Positions 6,276 to 49,450 of a stretch of 55,331 bases of DNA are shown here, piece by piece. Origin of the DNA: Methanobacteriota archaeon. GTDB taxonomy: Archaea; Halobacteriota; Methanomicrobia; Methanomicrobiales; Methanoculleaceae. Each line of letters begins with the position of its first letter. Positions within the stretch are counted from its first letter, which is position 1. Below the pieces are notes generated by a model, which was given only the letters and a program-made list of their open reading frames with translations, ran no database searches and had not been told where the DNA came from. Position numbers and translations under genes: made by a program. The stretch is taken from positions 1 to 55,331 of the forward strand of contig JASUSO010000003.1 of NCBI GenBank assembly GCA_030446015.1. Direction: 5' to 3'.

Positions 6276-6289
6276 TTCACAATCGTTAA
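6276..6289 (+). promoter_or_regulatory. Operator palindrome, upstream copy with one mismatch
   Basis: TTCACAATCGTTAA differs from the consensus TT[AC]ACAATTGT[GT]AA at one base. It touches the 3' side of the TATA box. Its centre is 29 bp from the perfect copy at 6305. Confidence 0.65.
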
Positions 6290-6304: not shown

Positions 6305-6318
6305 TTAACAATTGTTAA
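6305..6318 (+). promoter_or_regulatory. Operator palindrome before tRNA-Cys1
   Basis: TTAACAATTGTTAA, perfect two-fold symmetry, centred about 40 bp from the TATA box and ending six bases before the tRNA. It should overlap the first transcribed bases, a position suited to repression. Confidence 0.8.
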
Positions 6319-6324
6319 TTCTAC

Positions 6325-6396
6325 GCCGAGGTGGCGGAACGGCTACGCGGTTGACTGCAGATCAACTCCATCCCGGTTCGACTCCGGGCCTCGGCT
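6325..6396 (+). tRNA. tRNA-Cys (GCA), copy 1
   Basis: A full cloverleaf: acceptor GCCGAGG paired with CCTCGGC, three-pair D stem GCG/CGC, anticodon stem TTGAC/... with loop CTGCAGA (anticodon GCA, G37), a T arm with TTCGACT, and U73 as expected for tRNA-Cys. CCA is not encoded. The SepCysS1 start codon follows after only four bases, so tRNA and mRNA must share a transcript unless a promoter hides inside the tRNA. Confidence 0.97.
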
Positions 6397-6400
6397 CTCT

Positions 6401-9066
<2,666 letters not shown>

Positions 9067-9067
9067 G

Positions 9068-10537
9068 ATGCCTGGATCGGTCGGCACTGTGAAGACGGAG
9101 TACGTCACCTTCTCCGAACCCCTCACCCTCGAGAGCGGTGCGGTTCTTGCGCCGGTGACGATCGCCTACGAGACCTACGGCCGGCTGAACCGGGAGAAGA
9201 GCAACGCGATCCTGATCTGCCACGCCCTCTCCGGCGACGCCCACGCGGCAGGCTACCACGAAGGCGAGACCCGGCCGGGGTGGTGGGACGGCGTCATCGG
9301 GCCCGGGAAGGCCTTCGACACCGACCGCTACTTCGTCATCTGCTCAAATGTCATCGGCGGCTGCAAAGGCTCGACGGGGCCTGCTTCCATCGACCCCGCG
9401 ACCGGCCGGCCCTACGCCCTCTCCTTCCCGGTGATCACCGTGCGGGACATGGTCCGGGCGCAGAAACGGCTGATAGAACACCTCGGGATCGAGTGCCTCA
9501 CCGCGGTGGCGGGTGGCTCGATGGGAGGGATGCAGGCGCTCCAGTGGGCGGTCGCCTACCCGGAGGCGGTCCGGAAGGTGATCGCCATCGCCACGACCGC
9601 ACGCTCGACCGCCCAGCAGATAGCCTTCAACGAGGTCGGGCGGCAGGCGATCATGGCCGATCCCGCGTGGGCGGGCGGGAATTACCCGCCGGATAACCCG
9701 CCGGTACAGGGCCTGCGTCTCGCACGGATGATCGGGCACATCACCTACCTCTCCGACGGGGCGATGCGTGAGAAGTTCGGGCGGAACCTCCAGGGCCGCA
9801 GCAGCGTCGGCTACGGCTTCTCCACCGAGTTCCAGGTCGAGAGTTACCTCCACCACCAGGGCGAGTCGTTCACCCGGCGGTTCGACGCCAACTCCTACCT
9901 CTACATCACCCGGGCGCTCGACTACTTCGACCTCGCCGTGGACGACTCGCTCACCGCCGGGTTTGCCGGGGCGAAGGCCTCGTTCCTGGTCGTCTCGGTC
10001 TCTTCGGACTGGCTCTACCCGCCCTACCAGTCCGAGGAGATCGCAAACGCCCTGGCCGCAAACGGTATCCCGGTCCAGTACTGCGAGATCCGGTCGAACT
10101 ACGGACACGACGCCTTCCTCCTTGAGGACGGGCAGTTGAACTACCTCATCGGCACGTTCCTCGATCACCTGCTCGTCCGGGACGTCATGGAGACGGGCAT
10201 CCCGACTATCGCCGAGGAGGCGTCCATTCACGACGCCGCGAGGGTCATGATCGAGAACGCCGTCAACCACCTCCCCGTCCTCGCCGGGAAGGGCGACCTC
10301 GCCGGGATCGTCACCTCCTGGGACATCGCGAAGGCGGTCGCCTGCGGCCATAAGAGCCTCGACGAGATCATGTCCCGCTCGGTCGTCACCGCCGCCCCGG
10401 ACGAACCGGTCACGGAGGCCGCCCGAAAGATGGAGGAACGCTCGATATCCGCCCTCCCCGTCGTCGACGCCGACCGGCGGGTGATCGGGCTCATCTCAAG
10501 CGATGCGATCAGCACGCTGATAGGACGATGCACATGA
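9068..10537 (+). CDS. metX: Homoserine O-acetyltransferase with C-terminal CBS pair
   Basis: Makes O-acetylhomoserine, the substrate for MetY. The alpha/beta hydrolase core shows the nucleophile in GGSMGGMQ (near residue 145) and the catalytic histidine in NYGHDAFLLE (near 350). Residues from about 370 to the end form two CBS motifs (VRDVMETGIP..., LDEIMSRSVV...), which usually bind adenosyl ligands and may regulate the enzyme. I chose ATG 9068 because GGAG ends nine bases before it; an in-frame ATG at 9059 lies directly against that site. The 3' end overlaps the next gene. Confidence 0.92.
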   Translation: MPGSVGTVKTEYVTFSEPLTLESGAVLAPVTIAYETYGRLNREKSNAILICHALSGDAHAAGYHEGETRPGWWDGVIGPGKAFDTDRYFVICSNVIGGCKGSTGPASIDPATGRPYALSFPVITVRDMVRAQKRLIEHLGIECLTAVAGGSMGGMQALQWAVAYPEAVRKVIAIATTARSTAQQIAFNEVGRQAIMADPAWAGGNYPPDNPPVQGLRLARMIGHITYLSDGAMREKFGRNLQGRSSVGYGFSTEFQVESYLHHQGESFTRRFDANSYLYITRALDYFDLAVDDSLTAGFAGAKASFLVVSVSSDWLYPPYQSEEIANALAANGIPVQYCEIRSNYGHDAFLLEDGQLNYLIGTFLDHLLVRDVMETGIPTIAEEASIHDAARVMIENAVNHLPVLAGKGDLAGIVTSWDIAKAVACGHKSLDEIMSRSVVTAAPDEPVTEAARKMEERSISALPVVDADRRVIGLISSDAISTLIGRCT

Positions 10538-12431: not shown

Positions 12432-13361
12432 ATGGGACGGATTTACCGTGACATCACCTGGACGATCGGGAACACCCCGCTCGTCCGGTTGAACCGCGTG
12501 ACGGAAGGCTCCCGGGCGACGGTCCTCGCCAAGGTGGAGTCGTTCAACCCGATGGGAAGCGTGAAAGACCGGATCGGGGTCGCGATGATCGACGAGGCCG
12601 AACGGACCGGCAAGATCCGGGAGGGGACGACGATCGTCGAGGCGACGAGCGGCAACACCGGGATTGCACTCGCGTTCGTCTGTGCCGCCCGCGGCTACCG
12701 ACTCAAGCTCGTCATGCCCGAGACGATGAGCGTGGAGCGGCGAAAACTCCTCGCGGCGCTCGGCGCCGAGGTGATCCTCACCCCCGGGGCCGAGGGGATG
12801 AGGGGAGCAGTCGACCGTGCCGCCCGGATCGCCGCCGAGGACCCCAACGCCTACTTCGTGCCCCGTCAGTTCGAGAACCCGGCGAACCCCGCCGTCCACC
12901 GCCGGACAACGGCCGAGGAGATCTGGCGGGACACCGACGGGACCGTGGATGCCATCGTCGCCGGCGTCGGGACGGGGGGGACGATCACCGGTATTGCCGA
13001 GGTCATCAAGGCGCGGAAACCCACGTTTGCGGCGATCGCCGTCGAGCCGGCGGAGTCCCCGGTCCTCTCCGGCGGCCAGGCCGGCCCGCACCGTATCCAG
13101 GGGATCGGGGCCGGGTTCGTACCGGACGTTCTTCGGACCGATCTCATCGACGAGATCGTCCGGGTCGCCTCCGCGGACGCCTTCGCGATGGCACGCCAGC
13201 TCGCCGCAAAAGAGGGCATCCTCGCCGGGATATCGTCGGGCGCGGCGGTCCACGCGGCCTGCGAGGTCGCCCGCCGGCCGGAGTACGAGGGGAAGGTGAT
13301 CGTCGTCATCCTCCCGGACACCGGCGAGCGGTACCTCTCGACGGACCTCTTTGCAGCATGA
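12432..13361 (+). CDS. cysK: Cysteine synthase (O-acetylserine sulfhydrylase)
   Basis: A fold-type II PLP enzyme of 309 residues that makes free cysteine from O-acetylserine and sulfide. The PLP lysine is in [10 protein letters not shown], the substrate loop is [11 protein letters not shown], and the phosphate-binding glycine loop is [10 protein letters not shown]. Start ATG 12432 has AAAGGTGA upstream. With the next gene, a serine acetyltransferase, it gives a tRNA-independent cysteine route beside the tRNA-dependent one. Confidence 0.95.
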
Positions 13362-13377
13362 CGGAGGGCGGGGCGCG

Positions 13378-14331
13378 GTGAGCATCAGGGAAGATATCCG
13401 GACGGTCTTTGAAAAAGACCCGGCGGCCCGGTCGACGCTCGAGGTGCTCCTCTGTTACCCGGGCCTCCACGCGATCTGGGCGCACCGGATCGCGCACGCC
13501 CTCTACCGCCGCCGGCTCTACTTTCTGGCGCGGCTCATCTCTCATATATCGCGGGCGCTGACCGGGATCGAGATCCATCCCGGCGCGAAGATCGGCCGCC
13601 GGGTCTTCATCGACCACGGCTCGGGCGTCGTGATCGGGGAGACGGCGGAGGTCGGCAACGACGTCCTGATCTACATGGGGGTGGTGCTCGGCGGGACCGC
13701 GCTCGAGCGGACGAAGCGGCACCCGACGATCGAGGACGGCGTCGTCATCGGGTCGGGGGCAAGCGTCCTCGGCCCCATCACCGTCGGGCGCGGGGCGAAG
13801 ATCGGCGCCGGTTCGGTCGTCGTCCACCCCGTCCCCCCCGGTGCGACGGTCGTCGGAGTCCCGGGCAGGCTTGCCGGCCCGAAGTGTCAGCGGGGTCAGG
13901 AGCGGCTCGGCCGCGGCGACCTCCCCGACCCGATGCTCCAGGTGGTCAGCCGCATCCTTGACCGGCAGAACCGGATCGAGGAGCGGCTCCGGGCGGTGGA
14001 GCGGTCGGGCCTGGTCGGCGGCAAACGGCAGGAGGAGATCGCGCTCGAGGAGAGTGTCCGGGAGGCGTTAAAAGAGGTTATCGACCCGGAGGTCGGGATC
14101 GACGTCGTCGACCTCGGCCTGATCCGGGGGATCACCGTCCGGGACTCCTCGGTCCTCGTGGAGATGGTCCTGACCACCGCCGCCTGCCCGCTCGTCGATC
14201 ACCTCACCAAGCAGGTCCGGCGCCGGGTCCTCGACGTGAGCGGCGTCCGGGACGTCGAGGTGCAGATCCTCGACGAGCCCTGGGACTGGGACCGGTTCTT
14301 CGGCGAGCGGGATCTCCTCGGGAAAATTTAG
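13378..14331 (+). CDS. cysE: Serine O-acetyltransferase fused to a DUF59 (MIP18-like) domain
   Basis: Residues 1-170 are a short EpsC-type CysE: a small helical N-terminus, then left-handed beta-helix hexapeptides ([20 protein letters not shown]), catalytic histidines and PGRLAGPK. After a helical linker (about 180-215), residues 220-317 form a DUF59 domain ([20 protein letters not shown]) with a cysteine in TTAACPL. DUF59 proteins act in Fe-S cluster assembly. GTG 13378 is the likely start; ATG 13351, overlapping cysK, is the alternative. The gene ends tail to tail with nadA. I know of no reason for the frame to be an artefact: it is continuous. Confidence 0.88.
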
Positions 14332-15320: not shown

Positions 15321-15334
15321 TTAACAATTGTGAA
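15321..15334 (+). promoter_or_regulatory. Operator palindrome between nadA and a small gene
   Basis: TTAACAATTGTGAA in the divergent gap, 22 bases from the nadA start and 40 bases before the ATG at 15374. An AATTATCC sequence about 22 bp upstream could be the rightward TATA box, which would put the operator at the start site. Confidence 0.75.
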
Positions 15335-20674: not shown

Positions 20675-20688
20675 TTAACAATTGTGAA
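20675..20688 (+). promoter_or_regulatory. Operator palindrome between radical SAM and moaD-ttuA
   Basis: TTAACAATTGTGAA, 50 bases upstream of the radical SAM start and 120 bases before the moaD-like start. On the minus strand GTAATATATGG near 20730 is a good TATA box about 50 bp upstream of it, so the radical SAM gene is the likelier target. Confidence 0.75.
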
Positions 20689-22737: not shown

Positions 22738-22954
22738 GGCTTCTGGTCATCCCCTGTAGGATCTGTCTGCATATCGGTCGGCAAGGCTCTCCAAGCCGTC
22801 CGTTCTTGATCTCCAGTGCAAGGGACCTGATGGGCCCCCTCGCCTCTTCGTCGAATCCGGCACAGGAGCCACGTTTCCCTGATGGATGCAGGAAGACTCT
22901 GGAGGTGTATTCACAATTGTGAATCGGCGTGGGAAGAGAAAATGATTTGCGCAC
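22727..22954 (-). CDS. Possible small cysteine-containing protein coupled to larE1
   Basis: A GTG-initiated frame of 75 residues ends CRPICRQILQGMTRSHDA and overlaps the larE1 ATG, an arrangement typical of translational coupling here. The last 55 residues (GFDEEARGPIRSLALEIKNG onward) look like real protein, but the first 20 run through the operator at 22910, so either the start is wrong or a non-canonical start such as CTG is used. A competing frame (22747-22989) covers the same bases. No family recognised. Confidence 0.35.
   Translation of the reverse strand: MRKSFSLPTPIHNCEYTSRVFLHPSGKRGSCAGFDEEARGPIRSLALEIKNGRLGEPCRPICRQILQGMTRSHDA
22910..22923 (+). promoter_or_regulatory. Operator palindrome upstream of larE1
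   Basis: TTCACAATTGTGAA, perfectly symmetric. A possible leftward TATA (AAATCATTTT, about 22945) is 26 bp away, which would place the operator at the start of the larE1 transcript. Confidence 0.78.
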
Positions 22955-23063: not shown

Positions 23064-23077
23064 TTCACAATTGTGAA
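23064..23077 (+). promoter_or_regulatory. Operator palindrome before tRNA-Cys2
   Basis: TTCACAATTGTGAA ends seven bases before tRNA-Cys2. CCATAATGG near 23029 is a plausible TATA box, about 41 bp from the operator centre and 56 bp from the tRNA, matching the other tRNA-Cys promoters. Confidence 0.82.
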
Positions 23078-23084
23078 TCGCAGC

Positions 23085-23156
23085 GCCAGGGTGGCGGAGT
23101 GGCTACGCGGTTGACTGCAGATCAACTTCATCCCGGTTCGAATCCGGGCCCTGGCT
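23085..23156 (+). tRNA. tRNA-Cys (GCA), copy 2
   Basis: Acceptor GCCAGGG/CCCTGGC, anticodon loop CTGCAGA (GCA, G37), T loop TTCGAAT, U73. It differs from copies 1, 3 and 4 in the D loop (GAGTGGCTA) and by single bases near the variable loop and in the T loop. The E1-like gene moeB follows 77 bases later with no obvious separate promoter. Confidence 0.97.
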
Positions 23157-24713: not shown

Positions 24714-25100
24714 TTTGTTCACCTCGTATGGGTTCTGTCTTCAACCGGCTGTACGTCCGCTTAAGGGGGTGCGCTCGTTTATCACGGCGCCGTTATGGGA
24801 TTATGGAGATGCAACCGGGTCGGCTGCTGCCCGGAATGCGGCAGAGGAGGAAACGACAGTACTCGTTCGCACCCCGGGCGCCGCGTTCCGTAACGGTGAA
24901 CCTCTCCTGGTTCTTCCTCCCATCGGGGAAGGCTCCTCCGAAACCCGGTGTCGGTGTACGCATGGTCATCGCCTGTTCACAATTGTGAACACACTGTATC
25001 TGGCCGGCTTGACGATAACCGTTGGGAAAGCGGCAAGATTATGCGGCAGGAATTGCCGAAATATCCGCATATTTATAGGCTGACGGCCAACAGAATGAAC
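24714..25100. other. Gene-free stretch before tRNA-Cys3
   Basis: I see no supportable gene. It holds the operator at 24976 and, near 25040-25080, an AT-rich promoter island with TTGCCGAAATATCC and the strong TATA box GCATATTTATAGG (centre about 25075), which lies 51 bases before tRNA-Cys3. Confidence 0.6.
24976..24989 (+). promoter_or_regulatory. Operator palindrome far upstream of tRNA-Cys3
   Basis: TTCACAATTGTGAA within a GTTCACAATTGTGAAC 16-mer. It lies about 92 bp upstream of the tRNA-Cys3 TATA box, unlike the start-site position in the other four tRNA-Cys promoters. Confidence 0.78.
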
Positions 25101-25125: not shown

Positions 25126-25197
25126 GCCAGGGTGGCGGAACGGCTACGCGGTTGACTGCAGATCAACTCCATCCCGGTTCGACTCCGGGCCCTGGCT
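25126..25197 (+). tRNA. tRNA-Cys (GCA), copy 3
   Basis: Acceptor GCCAGGG/CCCTGGC; from the D arm to the T arm it is the same as copy 1 (anticodon loop CTGCAGA, T loop TTCGACT, U73). No gene follows; the next feature is another tRNA-Cys, 482 bases on. Confidence 0.97.
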
Positions 25198-25658
25198 CTC
25201 TTCTGTTGCATCGTTTCGCGGCGACGCTGTGATCCTGCTCTCTTCTCTGTGCTTCTGCTCTCCCGCCCGGTGCAGGTCGTTTCGCACCCCGGATGGGGAT
25301 CAGTATTTCGCTAATATCAGCATCTGCAGTCGAGCAATGCAGCCTCGTCCGGCGACTGGATGCGGGATCAGCAGCACTCGAACACCGGCCCTCGCACCGC
25401 AGGTGTGACCCGCGAAGAACGTGAAGGGAAGTTGATGGGTTGACCTCGTGAAAACAGCCTCAGGTAGTTTAGCGAAACACTGACACTCCTGTGTCTTGCA
25501 AAGACCTCGCCGCATACCCCGTTTCCCCCCAGGTAGTGCCGCACATGTGTCGGCTCTGCTCCCCGCTCCTGCCGACCCCCCCGAACGGAAGGAAAACCGG
25601 AAAATTTCGCCGCTTTGTGAATCTATATCTATCTACATGGGCTACCTATTATGTAGAG

Positions 25659-25672
25659 TTCACAATTGTGAA
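25659..25672 (+). promoter_or_regulatory. Operator palindrome before tRNA-Cys4
   Basis: TTCACAATTGTGAA, seven bases before the tRNA and about 39 bp from the TATA-like TCTATATCTA near 25627. Confidence 0.82.
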
Positions 25673-25679
25673 TTCAGGT

Positions 25680-25751
25680 GCCAAGGTGGCGGAACGGCTA
25701 CGCGGTTGACTGCAGATCAACTCCATCCCGGTTCGACTCCGGGCCTTGGCT
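25680..25751 (+). tRNA. tRNA-Cys (GCA), copy 4
   Basis: Acceptor GCCAAGG/CCTTGGC; the rest is identical to copies 1 and 3, with GCA anticodon, G37 and U73. It stands alone within the duplicated cassette. Confidence 0.97.
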
Positions 25752-26090
25752 CTCTTCTGTTACATTGTTTCGCGGCGACGCTGTGATCCTCCACTCTGAG
25801 TCTCTCTTTCGCATCGTGATTTCCGGACCATGGCGAGGACGATCGCAAAGCCCGCTCTCTTCTCCATATATCCGCTCTCCGGGCCAGGTGCAGGTTGCGT
25901 CATCTCCCGGATGGGGTTTTAGGGCGCTACAGAGATCACGCCGCATATCTTGTCTCCCCCCTGGATAGTGCCGTACGTGAGTCGGTCCTGCTCCCCGCTC
26001 CTGCCAGACCACCCGAACGGAGGGAAAGCCGGAAAAATCCGCCGCTTTGTGAATCTATATCTATCTGCATGGGCTACCTACTATGCAGAG

Positions 26091-26104
26091 TTCACAATTG
26101 TGAA
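26091..26104 (+). promoter_or_regulatory. Operator palindrome before tRNA-Cys5/SepCysS2
   Basis: TTCACAATTGTGAA, seven bases before tRNA-Cys5 and about 39 bp from the TATA-like TCTATATCTA near 26058. The geometry matches tRNA-Cys1, 2 and 4. Confidence 0.82.
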
Positions 26105-26111
26105 TTCTGAT

Positions 26112-26182
26112 GCCCGGGTGGCAGAGGGGTTATGCGTCCGACTGCAGATCGGAGAAGATGAGTTCGAGTCTCATCCCGGGCT
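26112..26182 (+). tRNA. tRNA-Cys (GCA), divergent copy 5
   Basis: A 71-base cloverleaf: acceptor GCCCGGG/CCCGGGC, D stem GCA/TGC, anticodon stem TCCGA/TCGGA with loop CTGCAGA (GCA, G37), four-base variable loop, T stem ATGAG/CTCAT with loop TTCGAGT, and U73. Anticodon and discriminator say cysteine, but D, anticodon and T stems differ strongly from copies 1-4. SepCysS2 begins 12 bases later with a GAGG ribosome site between. Confidence 0.93.
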
Positions 26183-26194
26183 TTTGAGGATACC

Positions 26195-28866
<2,672 letters not shown>

Positions 28867-28967: not shown

Positions 28968-29504
28968 ATGAGGATACTCTCCATTCATGCGGATACCATG
29001 TGGTATCGTCCCACGAGGAAGACGAAGATGGCGGAGGCCGTTGAACCCCGGGAAGACAGGATGGACGAATGCGTGGTCCTCTTCTGCTGCGTTGAGAAAC
29101 TCGACGAGAAAAACCCGTCGCACGTCGTCGCACATGCGAAGGCGAACATCATCGATCGGCTCTCGAAGTTGAAGGTGAACCGGGTCCTGATCTACCCCTA
29201 CGCCCATCTCACGAGCACCCTCGGGTCTCCGGAGTGTGCGCTCTCCATCCTGCAGAACCTTGAAGACGAACTCCGCTCTGTTGGCGTCGAGGTGAAGCGG
29301 GCGCCGTTTGGCTGGTACAAGGAGTTCGAGATCCGGGGGAAAGGCCACCCGCTCGCCGATCTCTCCATGACGATCTGCCCGTACGAGGGATGGGAGTGCG
29401 ACTTCCGGTGTCCGCATTGCAAAAACCCGATAAAAGAGGCCGACCTGGAGTCGTCCAGTACTTCTGATACCCGGACTCCGCCGGAACAGGGTATCGACCT
29501 GTAA
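28968..29504 (+). CDS. Stand-alone archaeal ThrRS editing domain with zinc-knuckle tail
   Basis: Residues 1-140 match the archaeal ThrRS N-terminal editing domain (D-aminoacyl-tRNA deacylase fold): MRILSIHADTMWY, CCVEKLDEKNP, PYAHLTSTLGSPE and RAPFGWYKEFEIRGKGHPL. That domain removes serine from tRNA-Thr. Here the catalytic and anticodon-binding parts of ThrRS are absent, and instead the chain continues with CPYEGWECDFRCPHCKNP, a likely zinc site, and a short tail. It lies 101 bases after metY2. It may edit in trans for a ThrRS elsewhere, or act on tRNA species of the cysteine pathway. Confidence 0.75.
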   Translation: MRILSIHADTMWYRPTRKTKMAEAVEPREDRMDECVVLFCCVEKLDEKNPSHVVAHAKANIIDRLSKLKVNRVLIYPYAHLTSTLGSPECALSILQNLEDELRSVGVEVKRAPFGWYKEFEIRGKGHPLADLSMTICPYEGWECDFRCPHCKNPIKEADLESSSTSDTRTPPEQGIDL

Positions 29505-29692
29505 CGGGGGGGCCGCAACGTATCGACAGGCAGCCCTCGTGATCGTTTTTCATACCGCTCTCCTTCGCCCGGAATCCCCTCCGGCATAACTTGCCGCAAA
29601 TAACTGCTTTTCACAAAAATCGAGCATATTTGGCCGTTTTGCCGGCTATTATCCCCTCTCGCGGCGACCTGTATATTCCACAAGGAGGTTCC

Positions 29693-30583
29693 ATGACGAA
29701 GATCCGAAGTGTTGCCATCTATGGCAAAGGCGGAATCGGAAAATCGACGACGACATCCAATCTCAGCGCAGCCCTTGCCGATATGGGAAAACGCGTCATC
29801 CAGATCGGATGCGACCCAAAGAGCGACTCGACCAACAACCTCCGTGGAGGGAGATCGATCCCGACGGTCCTCGATGCCATCAGGAGCGGGAAGGTGGTCG
29901 AGATAGAGGATATCGTGTACGAAGGGTTCGGCGGCGTCCTCTGCATTGAGGCTGGAGGTCCGGAGCCGGGTGTCGGTTGCGCCGGACGCGGGATCATCGC
30001 CGCAATCGAGCTCCTCCGCCAGAAGAAGGTCTTTGAGGAGTACCGGCCCGACGTCGTCCTCTACGACGTCCTCGGAGACGTGGTCTGCGGCGGGTTCTCC
30101 GTTCCCATCCGCGAGGGCGTTGCCGAGCAGGTCTACACCGTGACGTCTGCAGACTTCATGGCCATCTACGCTGCAAACAACCTCTTCAAGGGGATACAGA
30201 AGTACGCCAGCAGCGGCGGTGCGCTCTTCTCCGGCATCATCGCCAACTCGGTGACGCTGCCGATCCAGCGGGAGATCATCGACGACTTCGCGTCGCGGAC
30301 CAGTACCACCATTGCAGAGTACGTCCCGCGGTCCGATACGATCACCCGGAGCGAACTCCTGGGCCAGACCGCAATCGAGTACGATCCGGACTCAGAGCAG
30401 GCAGACGTCTATCGCAGCCTTGCACGAACACTGCTGCAGAACGAGGAGAAGTACGTCCCAAAGCCGCTCGAGGCAGCGGAACTGAAAGTGTGGGCGGAGT
30501 CGTGGTCGGATCGGCTCCTTACGAAGAAGAACGACGCGCGATCGACGTCCGGGTCACGGAATATCGCCTCGACGAGCACGTAG
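29693..30583 (+). CDS. NifH-like reductase of a nitrogenase-like system
   Basis: A 296-residue P-loop protein: GKGGIGKST at 11-19, and cluster cysteines C96 (VGCAGRG) and C132 (GDVVCGGF) that would hold a [4Fe-4S] cluster between two subunits. The start has AAGGAGG upstream. It differs from true NifH in several conserved loops (KSDSTNNL, RSIPTVLD), so it belongs to the nitrogenase-like groups. The last 25 residues are low-complexity. It heads a three-gene operon with NifD- and NifK-like partners and probably delivers electrons to them with ATP hydrolysis. Confidence 0.9.
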   Translation: MTKIRSVAIYGKGGIGKSTTTSNLSAALADMGKRVIQIGCDPKSDSTNNLRGGRSIPTVLDAIRSGKVVEIEDIVYEGFGGVLCIEAGGPEPGVGCAGRGIIAAIELLRQKKVFEEYRPDVVLYDVLGDVVCGGFSVPIREGVAEQVYTVTSADFMAIYAANNLFKGIQKYASSGGALFSGIIANSVTLPIQREIIDDFASRTSTTIAEYVPRSDTITRSELLGQTAIEYDPDSEQADVYRSLARTLLQNEEKYVPKPLEAAELKVWAESWSDRLLTKKNDARSTSGSRNIASTST

Positions 30584-30613
30584 CGGCATGCACCTGAGAT
30601 CGGGGAAATTGAT

Positions 30614-32167
30614 ATGGTATTTGCGACACGAGATGAGGCCGATTCGGCACTCTACGAGAAGAGGATAGACCTCTCCCAGGCGACCTGCCCCAACCGCGAA
30701 CAGAGGGCGAACGGCATCAACATCTTCTACGGCAAGGCAAGCGACCTCATCGAGAAGGCCCGGTCGGGGTGCCTGCAGAACCACGAGCGTGGTTTTGCAC
30801 AGTCATCCGGCTGCTCGCTGAACTTCTACCTCTCCGTCCGCGTCGGCACCATACGGGATGCTGCGACGATCTTCCACGCGCCGGTCGGTTGCTCCTCGTC
30901 GGCACTCGGGTACCGGGAGCTCTTCCGGGGGGTCCCTGTCGAGCTGGGAAGGCCGGCGGAGTACGACCTCCACTGGATGACCACGAACCTGCGCGAGAAG
31001 GACGTCGTCTACGGAGCGGGAGATAAGTTGAAGAAGGCGATCTACGAGGCTCAAGAGCGGTATAACCCAAAGGCCATCTTCATCCTCACCTCCTGCACCA
31101 CCGGCATCATCGGTGAGGATATCGAGGGGGCGGTTGCCGACGTTCAGCCGCACATCGACGCACGGATCGTTCCCATCCACTGCGAGGGGGTGCGCTCCAG
31201 GCTTGTGCAGACCGGCTATGACGCCTTCTGGCATGCGGTGCTGAAGTACCTGGTGAAGAAGCCGGAGAAGAAGCAGACAGACCTCGTGAACGTGGCGAGT
31301 ATGCTCTCGTATACCTGGCAGGACCGCCTTGAGATCCAGCGCCTGCTCGGCAAGATCAGACTCCGTGCAAACCTGATCCCGGAGTTTGCAACGGTCGAGC
31401 AGTTTCAGCAACTCTCGGAGGCCGCCGTAACCGCACCGCTCTGCCCAACCTACACCGACTACCTCTCGCGCGGGCTCGAACAGGAGTACGGCGTGCCCTA
31501 CTTCATGTATCCTTCGCCGATGGGCATCACCAACACCGACGAATGGCTCAGGCAGATAGGGAAGTACACCGGCAGGTCCGACGAGGTCGAAGCCCTCATC
31601 GAGGAGGAGCATCGGATCTGGGAGCCGAAGATGCAGGCCATACGGTCCGAGTTCGATCGGATCGCCGCAGAGAAGGGCAGCAAGGTGAGCGTTCTCGGTT
31701 CGCTCGGCCAGGGGCGGCTGCTGGCGCAGATGCCCTTCTTCGACGAACTCGGACTGACGTCGCCCGCGGCGATGTCGCAGGACTACGACAACCTGATCCT
31801 CGAAGAACTCGAGGAGGTCGTCTCCCGGGTCGGCGACTTCGACCTGCTGGTCAATACGTTCCAGGCGGCGGAGCAGTCGCATATTACGAGGAAACTCGAC
31901 CCCGACCTGACGCTCACCTGCCCGTTCCAGGGAGGAGCGTACAAGCGGATCAAGGGTGCGACCCGGATCCACGCCCTGCGCGGCGACCCGCATCCCTGGA
32001 GCGCCCAGAGCGGCTATACGGGGGCGGTGGCCTACGGAAACTTCCTGCTCCAGGCGTTGAAGAGCAGGTCGTTCCAGAAGACCCTCAAGGAGAAGACGAA
32101 GGACAGCTATCGCGACTGGTGGTTCAAACAGGGCAACCCCCTGTATTACATGAAGAAGGTGGTATAA
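30614..32167 (+). CDS. NifD-like catalytic subunit, unknown substrate
   Basis: A 517-residue nitrogenase component 1 homologue. P-cluster-type cysteines are C67 (SSGCSLN), C93 (APVGCSSS) and C161 (TSCTTGIIGEDI). Equivalents of the FeMo-cofactor ligands may be C277 (APLCPTYTDYL, before a GVPYF strand) and H460 (GDPHPWSAQSGY). An N-terminal TCPNREQRANG motif is also present. It is longer than CfbD and is paired with a NifK-like protein, so it is not the F430-synthesis enzyme. No nifE, nifN, nifB or nifI is nearby. Methylthio-alkane reductase is a known relative that works on C-S bonds. Confidence 0.85.
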   Translation: MVFATRDEADSALYEKRIDLSQATCPNREQRANGINIFYGKASDLIEKARSGCLQNHERGFAQSSGCSLNFYLSVRVGTIRDAATIFHAPVGCSSSALGYRELFRGVPVELGRPAEYDLHWMTTNLREKDVVYGAGDKLKKAIYEAQERYNPKAIFILTSCTTGIIGEDIEGAVADVQPHIDARIVPIHCEGVRSRLVQTGYDAFWHAVLKYLVKKPEKKQTDLVNVASMLSYTWQDRLEIQRLLGKIRLRANLIPEFATVEQFQQLSEAAVTAPLCPTYTDYLSRGLEQEYGVPYFMYPSPMGITNTDEWLRQIGKYTGRSDEVEALIEEEHRIWEPKMQAIRSEFDRIAAEKGSKVSVLGSLGQGRLLAQMPFFDELGLTSPAAMSQDYDNLILEELEEVVSRVGDFDLLVNTFQAAEQSHITRKLDPDLTLTCPFQGGAYKRIKGATRIHALRGDPHPWSAQSGYTGAVAYGNFLLQALKSRSFQKTLKEKTKDSYRDWWFKQGNPLYYMKKVV

Positions 32168-32168
32168 T

Positions 32169-33524
32169 ATGACGAATTCGGAGGCAAAAGGGGCATATGG
32201 CCCGAAAGATGCCCCGGAGCCCTCTGCAATCGAGGCCCCCAGGTTTTCCTGCGCCCTCGGGGGAGCGCTTGGCACGGCGGTCGGGATCTACGGCGTTGTC
32301 CCCATCCTTCACTCCGGTGCAGGATGCGGTATCGGGCAGCTCTTCGGGCAGCTCTATGCCGGGGGACAGAACGCCGGCGGGCCGCAGGGAGGGACCAGCA
32401 CCCCCTGCTCTTCGCTTGTGGAGCACCATGTGGTATTCGGAGGAGAGGAGAAACTCCGGGACCTGATCCGCGCCAGCACTGAGTTGATGGAAGGAGAGAT
32501 CTATGCGGTCATAAACGGCTGCGTCCCGTCGCTGATCGGCGACGACCTGAACGCTGTTGCAAAGGAGTTCCGCGGGAAGAACGATATCTTCTTTGTGCGG
32601 TCAGCCGGGTTTGCCGGAAATTCGTACGAAGGCTATGAACTCTTCTTCGAAGGGCTGATAGAGGACCTCCTCAAGCCGGCGGAGGAGATCCGGCCAAAGA
32701 CGGTGAACGTCTTCGGCATCGTCCCGTACCAGCATGTCTTCTGGAAAGGCGATGCGAGGACCATCAAGAACCTTCTCGCTGAGATCGGGATAACGGCCAA
32801 CGTCTTCCTCGCGGAGTTCGACGGAGCGGCTCAGCTGCTTGAGATCCCTGCTGCGGAGTACAACATCGTGCTCTCCACCTGGAACGGCCACCGGACGGCG
32901 AGGCTGCTGGAAGAGAGGTTCGGCACGCCGTACCTGACCTTCCCGTCGGTCCCCGTGGGGCCGAAGCAGACCGCGGAGTTCCTGCGCAGGGTGGCGAAGG
33001 TCTTCGATATATCGGAAGAGATTGTCGAGCGGGTGATCGCACGGGAAGAGCAACGGGTGTACCGGTTCATCGAATACGGAGGCGATGCCCACATGCTCGT
33101 CCGGCCGCACCCGTTCTTTGCGATTGCGGCGGATTCGGGGACTGCGATCGGCATCTCGCGCTTCCTCATCAACGAGCTCGGCTACCTGCCGGATATCGTC
33201 CAGATCACCGACGACCCGCCGGAGGAGGTGCGTGCGGAGATCGTCAAATGGCTCACGCAGGACCTTGAGACCCCTCTCACACCGGAGGTGGTCTTCGAGA
33301 CGGATGCGCACCTCATACGGCAGAACTTGAAGGGCAGGCCGTTCCTGTTCCTGTTTGCAAGTTCCCTCGAAGCCCCGATCGCTCTCGCGGAATGGGGCGC
33401 TCTCCCCATAACCGTCGCGTTCCCTGCGTTGAACCGGCTCATCCTGAATCGGACCTACGCCGGATTCGACGGAGCCCTGACTCTGTTTGAAGAGATCATC
33501 AGTTCGTTTGTCGGGCCCCTGTGA
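32169..33524 (+). CDS. NifK-like subunit
   Basis: A 451-residue partner starting one base after the NifD-like stop. Cysteines C28 (RFSCALGG), C53 (GAGCGIG) and C118 (INGCVPSLIGDDL) match the NifK P-cluster set; C80 (STPCSSL) is extra. The C-terminal half keeps the Rossmann-like repeats of the family (FGIVPYQHVFWKG, RFGTPYLTFPSVPVGPKQT). With the NifD-like subunit it should form the heterotetramer. A strong terminator overlaps its stop. Confidence 0.85.
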   Translation: MTNSEAKGAYGPKDAPEPSAIEAPRFSCALGGALGTAVGIYGVVPILHSGAGCGIGQLFGQLYAGGQNAGGPQGGTSTPCSSLVEHHVVFGGEEKLRDLIRASTELMEGEIYAVINGCVPSLIGDDLNAVAKEFRGKNDIFFVRSAGFAGNSYEGYELFFEGLIEDLLKPAEEIRPKTVNVFGIVPYQHVFWKGDARTIKNLLAEIGITANVFLAEFDGAAQLLEIPAAEYNIVLSTWNGHRTARLLEERFGTPYLTFPSVPVGPKQTAEFLRRVAKVFDISEEIVERVIAREEQRVYRFIEYGGDAHMLVRPHPFFAIAADSGTAIGISRFLINELGYLPDIVQITDDPPEEVRAEIVKWLTQDLETPLTPEVVFETDAHLIRQNLKGRPFLFLFASSLEAPIALAEWGALPITVAFPALNRLILNRTYAGFDGALTLFEEIISSFVGPL

Positions 33525-33965: not shown

Positions 33966-34305
33966 GTTGCTTTCATTGACAAAAACGATCCCTCATAGTG
34001 GAATCACCATACTCAGGTAGGGATTCACAATTGTTAACTTTTTCGATCCTTCCTGCTATGGGTTCGATGGGCCGTCATCGTGGCATAACCGTGATTAGAG
34101 GCAATTCAGGCCGCATAATCCCGAATTCGCCAAAAATTGCCGGTATCGGTGCGTGGATCATCAGGGCTCCGTATGCATCGAGGGGATGCAGCTGCCTGCA
34201 AAAAATTCTCGCCGCGCATGTGGGGTGCATCTGCGGCAGTTCATGCAACAATCGCCATACGTCCCCGATATCGGGTAGAAGGCGGCAACGATCCACCCCG
34301 GCGCA
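33966..34305. other. Gene-free stretch upstream of the winged-helix gene
   Basis: Contains the operator at 34024 and an AT-rich island (34100-34150) with GGCAATTCAGGCC and CCAAAAATTGCCGG. Frames here on both strands are short and unconvincing. Confidence 0.5.
34024..34037 (+). promoter_or_regulatory. Operator palindrome upstream of the winged-helix gene
   Basis: TTCACAATTGTTAA, 59 bases before the start at 33965. No clear TATA box could be placed. Confidence 0.72.
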
Positions 34306-36559: not shown

Positions 36560-36573
36560 TTCACAATTGTGAA
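36560..36573 (+). promoter_or_regulatory. Operator palindrome upstream of pdxS
   Basis: TTCACAATTGTGAA lies against ATATATTTAAAA (minus strand, about 36553), a good TATA box for leftward pdxS transcription. The operator would cover the BRE side rather than the start site. Confidence 0.75.
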
Positions 36574-40258: not shown

Positions 40259-40272
40259 TTAACAATTGTTAA
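40259..40272 (+). promoter_or_regulatory. Operator palindrome in the regulator/nifS divergon
   Basis: TTAACAATTGTTAA inside GTTAACAATTGTTAAC, 48 bases upstream of the regulator start and 48 bases before nifS. It could serve autoregulation and nifS control together. TTTAAA at 40225-40231 may belong to the leftward promoter. Confidence 0.8.
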
Positions 40273-47838: not shown

Positions 47839-48697
47839 GGCGAGACGGTGGAGTTGGGCTACTGCCCGCCGGCAGTCCGGCGGGGGAATGAATCCCGCTT
47901 CAAGCCAGATCTGGTCGGTCTCCTCAGTATGCGGCTCTTTATGGGATTTTTTGCGATAAACCGGTCTTTTGCACTGTGATCTCCGGGATCCCCGGCAGGA
48001 TCCGGTATTGCAGGTGGTTGCGCAGTTCACGTCTCTCCTCGTTATAAATGGCTCTCTTGCTGGGGGTAGTGTTTTTGAGGGACAGGATATGAACTTGCTG
48101 CAACTCCGGGTGGGGACTGGTTCCGCGGACCGCCCGGCTCGACCGGAGATACCGGAGCCGGAAAAGGGTACTTCGCCGTACGCCCTCTGCGGCGGGGTTT
48201 GCAAACGTCGTCTCCGGGAAGCCTCTGTCTTCGGGAGCGGGGACGCTTTTGGGTCTCAATTGCAGAAGAGTCGGGCATCGGCAGAACACCCCGATGGGCA
48301 CCGTGCCCGGCCAGGGACCGCCTGCCGCCCAGGGCATATTGGGAGACGGGCGGTCCGGGCAACGGTTCATTCGTGCCCTGCCCCGGGCCGTCCGTTGCCG
48401 CTGGAGGCGCTCCCGGCTTTCGGAGGTGGATACATCCGGGCATCTGTTCAGGTGGTACCACTCTATGCTGCTCTCGCCCGTCTCTGCCGGAACGACCTTC
48501 AGCGAAGGTGGGTATGCCTGATTGGGTGTTCCGGCACATATTGCACGAAGCCGGATCACTGACGGGATACATCCGGTCTCCGGCGGGGGGCTGCTCTGGT
48601 GGAAGGGCAGTCTTGCGAGGAGGGTTGACCCCTCTCTCGCCGGTATATCCGTAGCTCGCCGCAACTCATAAGAGTGTTGCAACCAAACAGAGGTGCA
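47839..48697. other. Long gene-poor stretch
   Basis: About 860 bases with many overlapping frames, none protein-like: proline-, arginine- and serine-rich translations and no ribosome sites. The first 100 bases may be the 5' part of the small gene at 47611. I see no RNA gene. The right end has the TrmB-side promoter and the inverted repeat at 48661. Confidence 0.5.
48661..48680 (+). promoter_or_regulatory. Inverted repeat upstream of the TrmB-like gene
   Basis: GCAAC-TCATAAGAGT-GTTGC lies 18-37 bases before the ATG at 48698 and may be the regulator's own operator. Confidence 0.4.
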
Positions 48698-49450
48698 ATG
48701 GTTGCCGAGATAGTTCCCGGGCTCCGGGCCCTCGGGATGAACGAATACGAGGCAAGCGTCTACTCGACGCTCGTCGGCCTCCAGAAAGCGACCGCACGGG
48801 ACATTCATGAGGCGAGCGGGGTACCCCGGGGGCGGATCTACGAGATCTTAAACGATCTGGCCCGGCGGGGATTCATCGGCGTGGAAGAGGGTTCTCCTTC
48901 CTCGTATTACATCCTCGATATCGACGTCGTCTTTGACCGGCTCAGGGACGACTACATCCGGTCTCTCGAAGAGACCCGCGAGGCGTTGAAGAGTCTCTCG
49001 GTCAAGCTGCGTCTTCCTCCCAACTCGTTCTTCATCCTCAGAAGCGACTGGGCAATCGAGAACCATGTTGCCTCGCTTTTCCGCCGGGTGAAAAAGAGCA
49101 TGGTCATCCTCTGCTATGACCCGGAGTTCCTCCGGAAGCACTATGCGGACATCAAACCCCTCGAACGCAAGATCGATCTCTACGTGGTCGTGCGAAAGAA
49201 GGACGAGTATGCCGAGATCAGGCTTCCGATCTACGAGGCCAGGGGAGCCGTGCTTGAACTTCTTGAGTCGCGACCCGTGAACGAGCCAGAGGTCGATCTG
49301 AGGAAGGATGAGTGTACGATCCTGGTCGACGGCCGGGACTTCTTCATCATCGCCACCGGGGGGTCCGGGCGGCACGCGGTGATCGGGTCGGATATGCCGA
49401 TCATCAGTTACCTGCAAAAGACGATCGTCGAGCGGCTCACCGGGACGTAA
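48698..49450 (+). CDS. TrmB-family transcriptional regulator
   Basis: A 250-residue protein: N-terminal winged helix (LRALGMNEYEASVYSTLVGL, ATARDIHEASGVPRGRIYEIL) typical of TrmB, then a coiled helix (YIRSLEETREALKSL) and a C-terminal effector domain with phospholipase-D-like fold (SMVILCYDPEFL, IIATGGSGRHAVIGSD). TrmB proteins sense sugars or other small molecules. No clear target gene lies next to it apart from its own promoter repeat. Confidence 0.88.
   Translation: MVAEIVPGLRALGMNEYEASVYSTLVGLQKATARDIHEASGVPRGRIYEILNDLARRGFIGVEEGSPSSYYILDIDVVFDRLRDDYIRSLEETREALKSLSVKLRLPPNSFFILRSDWAIENHVASLFRRVKKSMVILCYDPEFLRKHYADIKPLERKIDLYVVVRKKDEYAEIRLPIYEARGAVLELLESRPVNEPEVDLRKDECTILVDGRDFFIIATGGSGRHAVIGSDMPIISYLQKTIVERLTGT

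What the first reader, a model, noticed from the sequence alone, without database searches (positions are those of the whole stretch)
26112..26182. Divergent tRNA-Cys5 with a rebuilt body
Copy 5 keeps the anticodon loop CTGCAGA, U73 and a good cloverleaf but has different D, anticodon-stem and T-stem sequences. It is the copy joined to SepCysS2. It may be an orthogonal Sep-accepting tRNA, a dedicated biosynthetic carrier poorly bound by elongation factor, or a regulatory RNA.
Basis: partly seen in the sequence, partly recalled or inferred. Interest (0 to 1): 0.74.

Follow-up and report, generated by a model that had tools for sequence, protein, structure and literature searches.

The report
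Switch-controlled second tRNA-Cys lineage in methanogens
The odd fifth cysteine tRNA is not a rebuilt copy but one member of an old second family of cysteine tRNAs, found patchily in methane-making archaea, that sits just in front of the gene for the enzyme finishing cysteine on that tRNA and is probably switched together with a block of sulfur genes through a shared DNA control site.

Summary
In detail: 26112-26182 is a well-formed tRNA-Cys(GCA), U73, 12 nt before a SepCysS gene, and only 61-65% identical to copies 1-4. It is not a freshly rebuilt copy. The same body ("type 5") occurs in 7 of 232 genomes of its class and in Methanosarcinaceae. Its stems covary strongly, and it is 79-89% identical to copy 5 across that class gap, so it is a conserved second tRNA-Cys lineage. 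Linkage of tRNA-Cys to N-extended SepCysS was already published (Mukai 2017). New here, as far as the held literature shows: type-5 genes carry the palindrome TTnACAATnGTnAA in front, while housekeeping tRNA-Cys genes do not. All 11 exact copies of this box in the genome lie in this window, a sulfur/Fe-S island. The genome has SepRS and no detectable CysRS, so copy 5 can only be a SepRS substrate; "orthogonal" is not supported. SepCysS linkage is common but not obligatory: other species have a generic or decayed tRNA there, and some type-5 genes stand alone. Most likely copy 5 is a switchable Cys isodecoder that raises tRNA-dependent cysteine synthesis. A dedicated, EF-1A-poor carrier is not excluded: the lineages differ at the three T-stem pairs that elongation factor reads.

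The parts
26112..26182 (+). tRNA-Cys(GCA) copy 5, type-5 lineage, first gene of the SepCysS2 operon
   Evidence: ARAGORN; Rfam RF00005 55.8 bits; covariation
26142..26148 (+). anticodon loop CTGCAGA (anticodon GCA 26144-26146, G37 at 26147)
   Evidence: sequence
26158..26174 (+). T arm ATGAG-TTCGAGT-CTCAT, hallmark of type 5 (U50-A64, G51-C63, A52-U62 against C-G, C-G, G-C in generic tRNA-Cys)
26091..26104 (.). palindromic operator-like box TTCACAATTGTGAA, 7 bp before the tRNA
   Evidence: conserved position in relatives
26056..26061 (+). TATA-like element TATATC (inferred archaeal promoter)
   Evidence: sequence; relatives have TATAAATA at the matching place
26065..26088 (.). inverted repeat CTGCAT-N12-ATGCAG between TATA and box; copy 4 has CTACAT-N12-ATGTAG (both arms changed)
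   Evidence: sequence; G022 homologue
26183..26194 (+). 12-nt spacer TTTGAGGATACC with Shine-Dalgarno-like GAGG; would become the mRNA leader after 3' tRNA processing (inferred)
   Evidence: sequence
26195..27559 (+). SepCysS2, 454 aa, N-extended
   Evidence: NCBIfam PRK09331 637 bits, TIGR02539 406 bits; PDB 3wkr E 1e-91
27571..28866 (+). Cys/Met metabolism PLP enzyme, next gene of the operon
   Evidence: Pfam PF01053
28968..29504 (+). tRNA-Thr-ED family gene
   Evidence: Pfam PF08915; same partner in Mukai 2017
6325..6396 (+). tRNA-Cys copy 1, generic type, 4 nt before SepCysS1
6401..7774 (+). SepCysS1, 457 aa, N-extended
23085..23156 (+). tRNA-Cys copy 2, generic type
25126..25197 (+). tRNA-Cys copy 3, generic type
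25680..25751 (+). tRNA-Cys copy 4, generic type; its promoter unit is a duplicate of that of copy 5 (84% over 194 nt)
6305..6318 (.). operator-like box before tRNA-Cys1 (second, imperfect box at 6276-6289)
23064..23077 (.). operator-like box before tRNA-Cys2 (another at 22910-22923)
24976..24989 (.). operator-like box about 136 bp before tRNA-Cys3
25659..25672 (.). operator-like box before tRNA-Cys4
15321..15334 (.). operator-like box beside nadA
20675..20688 (.). operator-like box upstream of a PP-loop (TtuA-like) gene
34024..34037 (.). operator-like box; adjacent gene not identified
36560..36573 (.). operator-like box behind a TATA-like stretch; adjacent gene not identified
40259..40272 (.). 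operator-like box at the start of a class V aminotransferase (desulfurase-like) gene

Best explanation
Copy 5 is a working tRNA-Cys of an old second isodecoder lineage (type 5). SepRS charges it with phosphoserine, and SepCysS (any of three genes, including the one downstream) converts this to cysteine. It is the first gene of an operon tRNA-Cys - SepCysS2 - PLP sulfur enzyme. The operon starts at an archaeal TATA promoter with a TTnACAATTGTnAA palindrome next to the tRNA start, probably the site of an unknown regulator of this sulfur/Fe-S island. When the regulator releases (or activates), tRNA substrate and converting enzyme rise together, because in this pathway the tRNA is the carrier on which cysteine is made. 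The finished Cys-tRNA most likely still feeds translation. Shown: tRNA integrity and conservation, linkage, box distribution, SepRS present and CysRS not found. Inferred: co-transcription, regulation and its signal, charging, and use in translation.
For: Conserved lineage: 13 distinct type-5 tRNAs, 100% stem cells paired, 8 pairs doubly changed. They separate from all generic tRNA-Cys with 100/100 support, apart from one long-branch outgroup row; within-type identity 0.83, between types 0.63; copy 5 is 0.79-0.89 to Methanosarcinaceae type 5 but 0.61-0.65 to its own neighbours. Position: 7 of 7 type-5 genes in the class sit 7-14 nt before an N-extended SepCysS. 44 of 78 long SepCysS loci have a tRNA-Cys upstream, 30 of them within 4-17 nt, and all 44 have a box with at most 1 mismatch within 150 nt (shuffles 0). 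Island-confined box: all 11 exact copies in the genome are in this window; G022 has 9 in one 29-kb stretch; G013 4 in one stretch; G020 none. Type-5 genes not next to SepCysS in the loci read (L172-L174, L203) still carry the box, whereas housekeeping tRNA-Cys genes do not, best 4-7 mismatches. SepRS yes, CysRS no. Determinants GCA, G37 and U73 present.
Against: No expression, charging or binding data exist. The regulator was not identified; a box is not proof of regulation. The genome is about 90% complete, so absence of CysRS is not proof (but 99%-complete G022 also lacks it). Type 5 was collected with a T-arm pattern, so T-stem invariance is partly by construction. Minor SepRS elements A47 and A59 are absent from copy 5 (4-nt variable loop, G59).
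Confidence: 0.62

Rival explanations
1. Type 5 is a specialised carrier: Cys (or Sep) made on it is released or passed to sulfur metabolism rather than used by the ribosome, because its T stem binds EF-1A poorly.
For: Lineage kept distinct over two classes and tied to the sulfur box. The type-5/generic differences include pairs 49-65, 50-64 and 51-63, the T-stem pairs read by bacterial EF-Tu (EF-Tu rule from general knowledge). Usually linked to an extra SepCysS.
Against: The same spot holds a generic tRNA-Cys in most species. Type-5-linked SepCysS are not one clade (5 changes). Degenerate tRNAs upstream of SepCysS in L094, L021 and L042 show that the tRNA there is dispensable. Type 5 also occurs away from SepCysS.
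Confidence: 0.12
2. No functional difference: the operon was inherited or exchanged as a cassette, and whichever tRNA-Cys happened to sit there stayed. The body divergence is neutral history and extra dose is all that matters.
For: Type 5 and generic tRNAs interchange at the same site. Copies 4 and 5 share a duplicated promoter unit but carry different bodies. Patchy distribution, 7/232. All five copies are chargeable by the one SepRS (inferred).
Against: Type 5 stays separate and is not homogenised by gene conversion with several generic copies in the same genome, and it is tied to the box in two classes.
Confidence: 0.22
3. The tRNA acts in cis: its RNase P/Z processing trims the transcript so that a short-leader SepCysS mRNA results, coupling mRNA birth to tRNA maturation.
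For: Short spacing, 4-17 nt in 30 of 44 loci; SD-like GAGG in the spacer.
Against: Many long SepCysS genes have no tRNA upstream; spacing reaches 200 nt.
Confidence: 0.04

Closest known systems
tRNA-Cys / clade VII SepCysS loci (Mukai et al. 2017, PMC5424206)
   Same: tRNA-Cys gene beside N-extended SepCysS, with sulfur genes and a tRNA-Thr-ED gene: the same gene set as here.
   Different: The passages read do not mention two tRNA-Cys lineages, a shared operator or regulation (only those passages and the held literature were checked).
Methanosarcina mazei tRNA-Cys isoacceptors preferred by SepRS or CysRS (Hauenstein and Perona 2008, read only through PMC8762117 and PMC9976931)
   Same: Several distinct tRNA-Cys bodies in one methanogen, with core-region differences.
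   Different: This genome has no recognisable CysRS, so a SepRS/CysRS split cannot be the reason; type 5 occurs with and without CysRS.
tRNA-protein operons such as E. coli tRNA-tufB (general knowledge)
   Same: tRNA co-linear with a gene whose product uses that tRNA.
   Different: Single tRNA, archaeal promoter with a palindromic box, enzyme acts on this very tRNA.

Membership tests
tRNA-Cys | cloverleaf passing tRNA models, GCA anticodon, U73 | tested here: met
tRNA-Cys | charged in vivo and reads UGC/UGU | not testable with these tools
   needs charging and ribosome assays
SepRS substrate | G34 C35 A36, G37, U73 present; SepRS in the genome | tested here: met
SepRS substrate | minor elements A47 and A59 | tested here: not met
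   4-nt variable loop without 47, G59; copies 1, 3 and 4 also lack A59
SepCysS substrate | U73, the main SepCysS determinant (PMC5688128) | tested here: met
clade VII tRNA-Cys-SepCysS locus (Mukai 2017) | tRNA-Cys next to SepCysS plus sulfur genes plus tRNA-Thr-ED | tested here: met
clade VII tRNA-Cys-SepCysS locus (Mukai 2017) | N-terminal domain of SepCysS homologous to SepCysE | tested here: inconclusive
   N-extension of about 60 aa present but no sequence match to SepCysE structures
orthogonal tRNA (separate synthetase) | own synthetase, or determinants that exclude the standard one | tested here: not met
   single SepRS, no CysRS detected, standard determinants kept
tRNA pseudogene / tRNA-like leader | loss of anticodon or of stem pairing | tested here: not met
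   intact in copy 5; such relics exist in L094, L021, L042

The most novel reading that the evidence does not exclude
Methanogens keep two functionally different cysteine tRNAs: a housekeeping one for translation, and a sulfur-regulated type-5 one whose T stem tunes EF-1A binding, so that Sep/Cys made on it serves as a regulated reservoir or route to free cysteine and sulfur transfer.
Probability: 0.13. Interest if true: 0.85.

Novelty: new variant of a known kind. Interest (0 to 1): 0.52.

Why it matters
Why methanogens make cysteine on tRNA, and whether that tRNA-bound cysteine serves only translation, is open. A second, box-controlled tRNA-Cys lineage gives a direct test: compare EF-1A binding, charging and deletion phenotypes of type-5 and housekeeping tRNA-Cys in tractable Methanosarcinaceae that carry both. 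The box also defines a compact archaeal sulfur/Fe-S regulon with an unknown regulator.

Tried and rejected
Donor tRNA inside the own genome: none; best non-Cys matches are no closer than Cys1-4. CysRS-specific tRNA: no CysRS here; type 5 does not track CysRS. Strict co-evolution with SepCysS2: rejected by the SepCysS tree. Thermodynamic folding: not diagnostic, covariation used instead. SepCysE relation of the N-extension: no sequence match. First tRNA-Cys pattern had a wrong gap length (no hits) and was replaced. A tRNA tree held to one type-5 clade was not rejected (p-AU 0.146). Literature for the box sequence: 0 papers. HTH search near the boxes: only a TrmB-like gene at 48674-49450, not near a box. 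G15:G48 Levitt pair: not conserved in type 5. The third row of the protein alignment was a wrong coordinate range and is not used.

Full report
What is there. The window is a contig of a Methanomicrobiaceae methanogen, probably Methanoculleus (nearest SepCysS record Methanoculleus sp. UBA77, 97%). It holds five tRNA-Cys(GCA) genes and one tRNA-His. Copy 5, 26112-26182, passes ARAGORN and Rfam (55.8 bits). It shares GCC at the start, CTGCAGA and U73 with copies 1-4 but differs in the D arm, anticodon stem, a 4-nt variable loop and the T stem. It ends 12 nt before the ATG of a 454-aa SepCysS (637 bits). Copy 1 stands 4 nt before a second SepCysS at 6401. A third, shorter SepCysS lies on contig 36. 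Own-genome SepRS is present at 721 bits; the best CysRS score is 34 bits, in 666-aa and 1086-aa frames that look like paralogous synthetases.

Not a rebuild. Among 44 tRNAs of the genome, none is a donor for copy 5. A pattern for its T and anticodon arms finds 7 of 232 genomes of the class, in 6 genera and 3 families, and more in Methanosarcinaceae, family f8. Thirteen distinct type-5 tRNAs have all stem cells paired, 8 pairs with changes on both sides, 0 of 500 shuffles as high. Copy 5 is 0.79-0.89 identical to Methanosarcinaceae type 5 but 0.61-0.65 to copies 1-4. In the tRNA tree type 5 and generic split with 100/100 support, one long-branch Bathyarchaeota row aside. With T arm and anticodon arm columns left out the split still needs only 2 changes against about 12 shuffled. 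The pattern search fixes part of the T arm by construction. The unbiased tRNA-Cys pattern in Methanosarcinaceae nevertheless shows the same two-type situation: many TGCAGAGCGATTCC genes and a minority with GTGAGTTC.

Link to SepCysS. In all seven class genomes the type-5 gene lies 7-14 nt before an N-extended SepCysS. Of 78 distinct long SepCysS loci, 44 have a tRNA-Cys upstream, mostly generic, 30 of them within 4-17 nt. The association was described for clade VII SepCysS, with sulfur genes and tRNA-Thr-ED (PMC5424206); here 27571-28866 and 28968-29504 match that. It is not obligatory. Type-5-linked SepCysS do not form a clade (5 changes). L094, L021 and L042 show tRNA remnants without a working Cys anticodon arm. 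In L172-L174 and L203 type 5 stands before other genes. G002 has a boxed generic tRNA-Cys with no SepCysS in the 6 kb read around it.

The box. TTnACAATTGTnAA occurs 11 times in the whole genome, all in this window; 9 in G022, all within one 29-kb stretch; 4 in G013, all in one stretch; none in G020. With up to 3 mismatches the window has 12 against 0.4 expected. In relatives there are usually two boxes, one abutting TATAAATA and one just before the tRNA, about 28 bp apart. All 44 tRNA-linked SepCysS loci have a box with at most one mismatch within 150 nt of the tRNA; shuffles none. Housekeeping tRNA-Cys genes have none (best 4-7 mismatches), while 12 of 13 type-5 sequences have one within 70 nt; in L205 two boxes lie about 145-160 bp upstream. 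Boxed neighbours in the window include both SepCysS operons, copies 2-4, nadA, a PP-loop gene and a class V aminotransferase, so sulfur or Fe-S demand is the likely signal. The regulator was not found.

How it most likely works. SepRS charges copy 5 and SepCysS converts it: the shared determinants GCA, G37 and U73 are present, the minor SepRS elements A47 and A59 are not. Transcription from the boxed promoter would give tRNA and SepCysS2 in one RNA; 5' and 3' tRNA processing would leave an mRNA with a 12-nt leader bearing GAGG. Raising carrier and enzyme together raises tRNA-dependent cysteine synthesis. Use in translation is the default. A dedicated carrier is possible, since the lineages differ at the EF-read T-stem pairs, but interchange and decay of the linked tRNA argue against a strict requirement.

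Limits. No expression or biochemical data. Genome about 90% complete; the ordinary Methanoculleus tRNA-Cys was not seen in it, perhaps in a gap. Prevalence of type 5 is a lower bound: exact pattern, incomplete genomes, contig ends such as L005.

Noticed in passing
window 26065-26088 and 25633-25656: Inverted repeat CTGCAT-N12-ATGCAG (copy 5) and CTACAT-N12-ATGTAG (copy 4) between TATA and box, with changes on both arms; kept in G022 as CTGCATGTGGCATCTACTATGCAG. May be a second protein-binding site.
   Followed up: partly
L094, L021, L042 upstream of SepCysS: Degenerate tRNA-Cys remnants (one of type 5) directly before SepCysS.
   Followed up: partly
G197 (family f5, genus g36): 14 matches to the tRNA-Cys pattern in one complete genome, far above the usual 1-4.
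   Followed up: no
window 29591-33524: NifH-like plus two nitrogenase-component-1-like genes inside the sulfur island; possibly a sulfur-scavenging nitrogenase-like reductase.
   Followed up: no
window 13351-14331: Serine acetyltransferase-like protein with a C-terminal FeS_assembly_P domain.
   Followed up: no
window 9041-10537: MetX with C-terminal CBS-type domains.
   Followed up: no
window 36560-36573: Perfect operator box with a TATA-like stretch but no gene recognised by Pfam directly behind it.
   Followed up: partly
L072 (G016), upstream of SepCysS: A tRNA-Cys before SepCysS1 whose middle is a run of N in the held record.
   Followed up: no
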